This document shows positions 45,695 to 50,720 of a DNA stretch of 64,000 nucleotides, in pieces. Below the pieces are notes generated by a model. The model was not told the DNA's origin, made no database searches, and saw nothing but the letters and a program-made list of their open reading frames with translations. The translations under genes and the position numbers were made by a program. Positions within the stretch are counted from its first letter, which is position 1. Each line of letters begins with the position of its first letter. The DNA is taken from the NCBI RefSeq assembly GCF_018417535.1, contig NZ_CP070977.1, positions 682,001-746,000 of the forward strand. The letters run 5' to 3'. Source of the DNA: Burkholderia pyrrocinia (GTDB lineage Bacteria > Pseudomonadota > Gammaproteobacteria > Burkholderiales > Burkholderiaceae).

Positions 45695-45740
45695 GCCGGT
45701 CTCGTGTCAACGCATGCGTGTTCCTTATGGAAACAGCCCC
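45695..45740 (+). repeat. Decayed right end of the 316-bp palindromic element
   Basis: This 46-base stretch matches bases 50672-50717, the right terminal part of the element at 50405-50720, in 40 of 46 positions and in the same orientation. It ends 43 bases before the start of the acyl-CoA ligase gene. The other parts of the element are absent, because the selO gene lies immediately to the left. Confidence 0.7.
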
Positions 45741-50404: not shown

Positions 50405-50720
50405 TTAGGGTCTGTTTACATATGGAACGCACATGCGAATGCCCGAAATCGCTCGTCCCCCAAGGGGACTTCCTTCGGGGCGTATGGCAAGAAGTGAGGA
50501 GCGCCGTTTGGCCGAGCCAAACAAGCGACGAGCGACGCCGCCATACGGGTGATTTCGGGCATTCCCGTGACATGAATTTTCTAATTTGGGGTTGCCACGA
50601 GAACGGCCGCTCGCCGCGTTGCGCTCCTTGCGAATACGTCAGTATTCGCGGCGTCGCGCGCCTCGCGAGCGGCCGTTCTCGTGGCAACGCATGCGCGTTC
50701 CATATGTAAACAGACCCTAA
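50405..50720. repeat. 316-bp palindromic, MITE-like element with 33-bp terminal inverted repeats
   Basis: The ends TTAGGGTCTGTTTACATATG... and its complement match in 32 of 33 positions (50405-50437 and 50688-50720). Inside are two further inverted repeats: AATGCCCGAAATC at 50438-50450 with 50551-50563, and a perfect 24-bp pair at 50591-50614 with 50665-50688 capped by an 8-bp stem (50630-50637/50642-50649). The element fills almost the whole pncA-thiolase gap. The TA inside each TTA/TAA end would fit a TA target-site duplication, as in IS630/Tc1-type elements. There is no transposase gene; a 95-codon open frame inside is most likely a by-product of the hairpins. Confidence 0.8.

What the first reader, a model, noticed from the sequence alone, without database searches (positions are those of the whole stretch)
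50405..50720. Non-coding 316-bp element with nested palindromes between pncA and a thiolase gene
The element has 33-bp terminal inverted repeats (32/33 identical), two internal hairpins (one 24-bp perfect arm pair plus an 8-bp cap), and no transposase. It fills nearly the entire intergenic space and would place very stable structured RNA between two cotranscribed-looking genes. The ends TTAGGGTC/GACCCTAA allow a TA target duplication, as in IS630/Tc1-like elements. This makes it look like a miniature transposable element or a large REP-type structure that may act as a terminator, an RNA stabiliser or a protein-binding site. I do not know of a name for it.
Basis: seen in the sequence. Interest (0 to 1): 0.75.

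Follow-up and report, generated by a model that had tools for sequence, protein, structure and literature searches.

The report
Fold-back mini-transposon with self-matching arms
This is a short gene-less jumping DNA that folds back on itself along its whole length, carries the ends of a common type of bacterial insertion sequence, and has two distant arms that change in step with each other even at sites where it has stopped moving.

Summary
Window 50408-50717 (310 bp, TA on both sides) is one copy of a dispersed Burkholderia family: ten long copies in its own genome, matches in 64 of 65 genus genomes (49 at E below 1e-20). It is a MITE. Its ends and TA target match complete IS5-family insertion sequences (about 800-860 bp) found in other genomes, not IS630/Tc1; none was found in the window's genome. 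The nicotinamidase-thiolase junction lacks it in 29 of 29 other genomes first fetched, three of them keeping terminal-repeat remnants. The unexpected part: at 19 sites shared between species, the stems show 42 mirrored two-sided changes, half of them transversions, against 74 one-sided states with no clear G-U preference (26 G-U, 20 A-C). Within a genome, an element's two ends match each other better than they match sister copies (70 closer, 3 equal, 5 farther, of 78). Best account: arm-to-arm correction by replication template switching (inferred). A looser pairing definition did show a G-U excess in the hairpins, so RNA selection is not excluded. Effects on the neighbouring genes are untested.

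The parts
50406..50719 (.). whole element with the flanking TA on each side; core 50408-50717
   Evidence: TA target shown at another copy's site, L005
50408..50437 (+). left terminal inverted repeat (outer stem)
50432..50569 (+). hairpin A
50456..50482 (+). 27-bp module TCCCCCAAGGGGACTTCCTTCGGGGCG, absent from most family members (17 of 173 carry it by pattern)
50503..50530 (+). apex motif of hairpin A, GCCGTTTGG-N5-CCAAACAAGCGACG
50570..50590 (+). AT-rich linker between the hairpins
50591..50688 (+). hairpin B with 24-bp perfect arms and 8-bp cap
50688..50717 (-). right terminal inverted repeat (outer stem)

Best explanation
It is a non-autonomous IS5-family MITE. A transposase of an IS5-family insertion sequence once recognised its GGGNCTGTT...AACAGNCCC ends and inserted it at a TA, which was duplicated (ends, target and cognate insertion sequences shown; the act of transposition inferred). 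In this genome it now looks stranded and is inherited with the locus (inferred from finding no cognate transposase). Because the whole element is a nest of inverted repeats, replication can switch template from one arm to the other, so a mutation in one arm is copied into, or removed by, the other. That keeps the arms matched at fixed sites while their sequence drifts (matched drift shown; template switching as its cause inferred).
For: Dispersed copies and a 98% identical copy at a different place in another species, L061, whose own thiolase junction is empty (L233). Empty sites for two further copies: 25 of 25 printed loci for L003 and 24 of 24 printed other genomes for L005; at L005 two (L382, L387) read plain CTAG, i.e. 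TA became TA...TA. Insertion sequences with the same ends and TA flanks: L351 (859 bp with flanks; IS5-family model above its cut-off for both frames), L407, L419, L414, L415, L420, L422, L423, L425, L426. Mirrored changes at 19 shared sites: 42 (21 transversion-type) against 74 one-sided states; independent change would give about 0.3 (my estimate from those counts). 39 perfect 22-bp terminal-repeat haplotypes, 26 confined to one site. Own arms closer than sister copies in 70 of 78 unfiltered regions, equal in 3, farther in 5. Complementary changes also at letters 1-3 outside GGG...CCC, not at 4-12. One in-situ inverted copy, L290 against L076/L082.
Against: No template-switch event was observed directly. 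Selection for a DNA hairpin could also keep arms matched. A looser pair definition gave 84 G-U against 36 A-C states, and by cells hairpin A of type 2 had 38 G-U against 4 A-C, so selection on RNA in the hairpins is not excluded. Five of 78 regions had arms farther apart than sister copies. The empty letters at the window's own junction (mostly GATTCAGGACATG) do not give a clean TA duplication; at L003 none of the 25 empty alleles has TA, only the length fits.
Confidence: 0.68

Rival explanations
1. The element is a MITE, but its stems are kept paired by selection on the transcript (structured RNA, for instance an RNase III substrate or mRNA stabiliser), through ordinary compensatory mutations.
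For: Very stable fold; same layout of outer stem, hairpin A, linker and hairpin B in consensus folds of three end types; G-U excess in hairpins under a looser definition (84 against 36 states) and in type-2 hairpin A by cells (38 against 4).
Against: In strict stems G-U and A-C one-sided states are 26 and 20 (p 0.46), and in the outer stem 5 and 7; half of the mirrored changes are transversions that cannot pass through a G-U pair; mirrored letters lie outside the element too. No Rfam family above threshold.
Confidence: 0.15
2. Mirrored changes arise because whole elements are overwritten by sister copies (ectopic gene conversion), which replaces both arms at once.
For: Type-1 copies of the own genome share one terminal-repeat haplotype.
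Against: 26 of 39 haplotypes occur at one site only and copies within one genome differ in haplotype; own arms are closer than sister copies in 70 of 78. Not all copies of each genome were fetched.
Confidence: 0.1
3. One reading: an IS630/Tc1-type element, a large REP-type structure or a terminator.
For: TA target and strong hairpins in an intercistronic gap.
Against: Transposases found with these ends are IS5-family; terminator-like sites 1 against 0.4 in shuffles.
Confidence: 0.05

Closest known systems
Prokaryotic MITEs of IS5-family insertion sequences
   Same: Non-coding, terminal inverted repeats and TA target shared with complete IS5-family elements.
   Different: The interior is not a shortened insertion sequence: two long hairpins with conserved apices fill it, and the arms drift in step.
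Correia/NEMIS elements of Neisseria
   Same: TA at termini, long stem-loops, reported in-place inversion and RNase III cutting of transcripts (passages of PMC10969869; PMC2229807).
   Different: Those are about 107 and 155 bp with 24-bp repeats (PMC2229807 passages) against 310 bp here. Sequence relation not tested; a resemblance of one apex was recalled only.
RUP of pneumococcus
   Same: Short element tied to an insertion sequence by its ends and TA target (PMC2229807 passages).
   Different: 107 bp and linked to IS630-Spn1 there; IS5-family here.
Template-switch (quasipalindrome) correction
   Same: A single event makes two-sided, pairing-preserving changes; proposed for RNA genes (abstract and passages of PMC8794818); PMC7202029 seen as listing only.
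   Different: Here in a mobile element with terminal arms about 250 bp apart, compared at the same sites across species, with a control against sister copies.

Membership tests
IS5-family MITE | short, non-coding, no transposase | tested here: met
   310 bp; only ORF has no family match
IS5-family MITE | terminal inverted repeats | tested here: met
   32 of 33
IS5-family MITE | many dispersed copies and sites without the element | tested here: met
IS5-family MITE | target duplication (TA) | tested here: met
   81 of 130 TA/TA; plain CTAG empty allele in 2 of 24 other genomes at the L005 site; not resolved at the window's own junction
IS5-family MITE | ends shared with an autonomous IS5-family element | tested here: met
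   in other genomes: L351, L407, L419, L414, L415, L420, L422, L423, L425, L426; none in own genome at E<=1e-15
IS5-family MITE | mobilised by that transposase | not testable with these tools
   needs a transposition assay
IS630/Tc1-type MITE | ends shared with an IS630-family transposase | tested here: not met
   the transposase between such ends in L351 scores as IS5 family; IS630 models were not searched genome-wide
REP/BIME | short (tens of bp) palindromes without terminal repeats or target duplication (definition recalled) | tested here: not met
   310 bp, TIR-bounded, TA-flanked
Structured RNA family | pairing kept with a G-U over A-C preference | tested here: inconclusive
   26 against 20 in strict stems; 84 against 36 in the looser definition
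Structured RNA family | match to a known family | tested here: not met
   only sub-threshold microRNA models
Rho-independent terminator | G+C stem followed by a T-run | tested here: not met
   one weak site on the - strand, shuffles 0.4
Correia/NEMIS | sequence homology | not tested
   no Neisseria sequence was fetched

The most novel reading that the evidence does not exclude
A mobile element whose arms, about 250 bp apart, correct each other through replication template switching, so that each genomic site drifts as its own self-matching haplotype: a natural, genus-wide record of quasipalindrome correction, in which strong covariation arises without selection on RNA.
Probability: 0.6. Interest if true: 0.72.

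Novelty: new variant of a known kind. Interest (0 to 1): 0.55.

Why it matters
Covariation is commonly taken as proof of a functional RNA. This family shows strong covariation without a clear wobble preference in strict stems, partly in letters just outside the element, so it offers a test set for separating replication-driven arm correction from selection. It also ties a Burkholderia repeat, for which I found no name in the searches, to IS5-family insertion sequences.

Tried and rejected
Rfam: only sub-threshold microRNA models for the long hairpin, taken as chance. Autonomous partner in the own genome: not found (in one search I inspected the listed end matches by eye; several single unpaired ends remain). 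Phage records: no match. IMG/VR: 2 contigs with the apex motif, not opened. Plasmid collection: 8 records, all Burkholderiaceae, 0.87-3.2 Mb; the three regions opened have no annotated features in the stretch, so gene context could not be read there. Phylum sample: exact apex motif only in the own genome of 398; the pattern is strict, another Burkholderia in that sample (G012) lacks it too.

Wobble counts that I set aside, told in full. (115 of 118 elements): outer stem 8 G-U and 53 A-C, hairpin A 110 and 16, hairpin B 51 and 13; dropped because it counts mismatches inherited by whole subfamilies. (energy-based pairs at shared sites): 84 G-U and 36 A-C states; replaced because energy folding admits G-U in weak internal loops, which may bias it. 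(within types): hairpin A of type 2 had 38 G-U and 4 A-C cells (8 and 4 states), outer stem of type 2 had 2 and 8. The strict count uses runs of at least 8 stacked pairs.

Filter losses: my end pattern missed 21 of 89, 3 of 29 and 21 of 118 loci. Of the missed ones, 19 were looked at again: 12 have 1-2 arm differences, three have 3, and four have 5-6. One search used a crude codon-position model for genes: 86 elements tested, 13 unclassified.

Literature: searches gave no description of this family; passages only of PMC10969869, PMC8794818 and PMC2229807 were seen, all other papers as listings. The library holds open-licence papers only.

Full report
What is there. The reported repeats are exact and the + strand folds end to end (z -16.9). 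The core is 50408-50717 with TA on either side. It begins 20 bases after a nicotinamidase/pyrazinamidase gene and ends 30 bases before an acetyl-CoA C-acyltransferase gene.

A family. The own genome (8.54 Mb, 3 contigs) holds ten long copies (L001-L010) in at least three end types, plus two relics. In the genus, 64 of 65 genomes match at E<=0.001; 49 of 65 have a match below 1e-20 by my count of the table, and the weaker ones may be only the short 27-bp module or a relic. An exact apex pattern found 118 stretches in species genomes before the scan stopped at its limit; the 80 listed are from Burkholderia, Paraburkholderia, Caballeronia, betaproteobacterial and other proteobacterial MAGs, one of them labelled Amphritea. 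In an even sample of 398 phylum genomes only the own genome has that exact motif. In all, 173 distinct elements were delimited, with losses by my filter (21 of 89, 3 of 29, 21 of 118). Consensus folds of the three main end types (48, 34 and 14 copies) show outer stem, hairpin A, linker and hairpin B in the same order, with largely different stem letters. Since loci L101-L218 were found by the apex motif, conservation of that motif itself is no evidence there; letters beside it are also alike between types.

Mobility and its agent. The closest relative, 98% identical, is L061 in another genome at another place; that genome's thiolase junction is empty (L233). For copies L003 and L005, joined flanks align to relatives. 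All 25 loci printed for L003 and all 24 other genomes printed for L005 lack the element; L382 and L387 read plain CTAG where L005 has CTA...TAG. At the L003 site no empty allele has TA, but the length fits a two-base duplication. In a genome with type-3 elements, a pair of the same ends encloses an insertion sequence of 859 bp (with flanking CTA/TAG) in two overlapping frames; both score above the cut-off of the IS5-family model. Related transposases occur at 22 places in 12 of 65 genus genomes. Of these, L407 and L419 have TA-flanked ends like type 1, and L414, L415, L420, L422, L423, L425 and L426 ends like type 2; four more (L406, L408, L411, L417) show one such end only, the rest none that I recognised. 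The own genome has no such transposase at E<=1e-15, and its end motifs enclose nothing longer than the mini-elements (by inspection). So the element is an IS5-family MITE, probably stranded here. The IS5 subgroup was not tested.

The junction. All 65 genus genomes have the thiolase start. The junction was read in 29 other genomes: none has an intact element. In 19 of them the empty allele contains CAGGAC (as in GATTCAGGACATG), seven are other short variants, and three (L229, L230, L231) keep a left or right terminal-repeat remnant. Ten of eleven more distant genomes could be read and also have no intact element; 24 were not fetched. So the junction was occupied in more lineages, or is a repeated target, and the insertion in the window need not be young. 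The empty letters do not give a clean TA duplication; this is unresolved.

Arms in step. Copies at the same place in different genomes were grouped by their flanks: 19 sites, 64 copies. In stacked stems (1575 site-by-pair positions; the inverted copy L290 left out) 42 two-sided changes keep Watson-Crick pairing: outer stem 21, hairpin A 12, hairpin B 6, outside letters 3; 21 are transversion-type. One-sided states are 74: G-U 26, A-C 20, other 28. With independent change at the one-sided rate I would expect about 0.3 mirrored changes (estimate). G-U and A-C do not differ significantly (p 0.46); in A and B together they are 20 and 12, in the outer stem 5 and 7. Against this, looser definitions give a G-U excess in the hairpins (numbers in Tried and rejected), so RNA selection on A and B stays open.

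Sister copies as a control. Of 173 elements, 123 have a perfect 22-bp terminal pair, in 39 haplotypes, 26 of them confined to one site. In 21 genomes with two or more type-1 copies, own arms differ by 0.29 of 22 letters on average, against 2.49 to the left arms of sister copies; 60 closer, 8 equal, 0 farther, of 68. That set had been filtered for matching ends, so I repeated it on fetched regions without the filter: of 89, two at contig ends and nine alone in their genome were left out; of 78, own arms are closer in 70, equal in 3, farther in 5. In 130 elements (one per shared site), complementarity of flank letters exceeds shuffles at positions 1, 2 and 3 outside the core (127 against 110, 98 against 77, 78 against 60) and not at positions 4-12. 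Position 3 may partly reflect a palindromic target (CTAG or TTAA).

Mechanism. Template switching between imperfect inverted repeats predicts this pattern (PMC8794818, abstract and passages). Inversion of the interior is a further expected outcome: at one site L290 is inverted relative to L076 and L082, all three with the end GGGACTGTTTCC; 106 of 108 same-site pairs have the same orientation, and the two others are this case. Independent insertion is not excluded. Selection for a DNA hairpin remains possible.

Function here. No promoter-like site and no convincing terminator. RNase III cutting, reported for Correia transcripts (PMC10969869 passages), is plausible for such long stems but untested.

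Verdict. A known kind of element (MITE) with an unusual anatomy and an unusually clear record of arms drifting in step; the cause is inferred.

Noticed in passing
window 50456-50482; L005; L029, L030: A 27-bp palindromic module sits inside the window copy. By pattern it is in 17 of 173 elements at several positions, usually between CGT letters, and is present in some and absent in other copies of one site (L191 against L088, L146, L260). In the own genome it has 10 matches with up to 2 mismatches, 8 outside these elements. It may be a second, nested small repeat.
   Followed up: partly
window 45695-45740: Relic of the right end of another family copy, before the acyl-CoA synthetase-like gene.
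   Followed up: partly
L002, L064, L068, L174 and others: In 21 of 86 elements tested with a crude gene model, a neighbouring gene ends exactly at the element border, so that the TA plus the first G of the core forms its stop codon. Whether this is the native stop or a truncation was not tested.
   Followed up: partly
L076, L082, L290: Element interior inverted relative to the flanks at one shared site.
   Followed up: partly
L106, L112, L122, L131, L141, L155: Short members of 177-193 bp lacking most of hairpin B; L131/L169 and L128/L141 show short and long forms at one site.
   Followed up: no
L449, L450: Two IMG/VR contigs carry the apex motif; possibly host DNA in prophage contigs.
   Followed up: no
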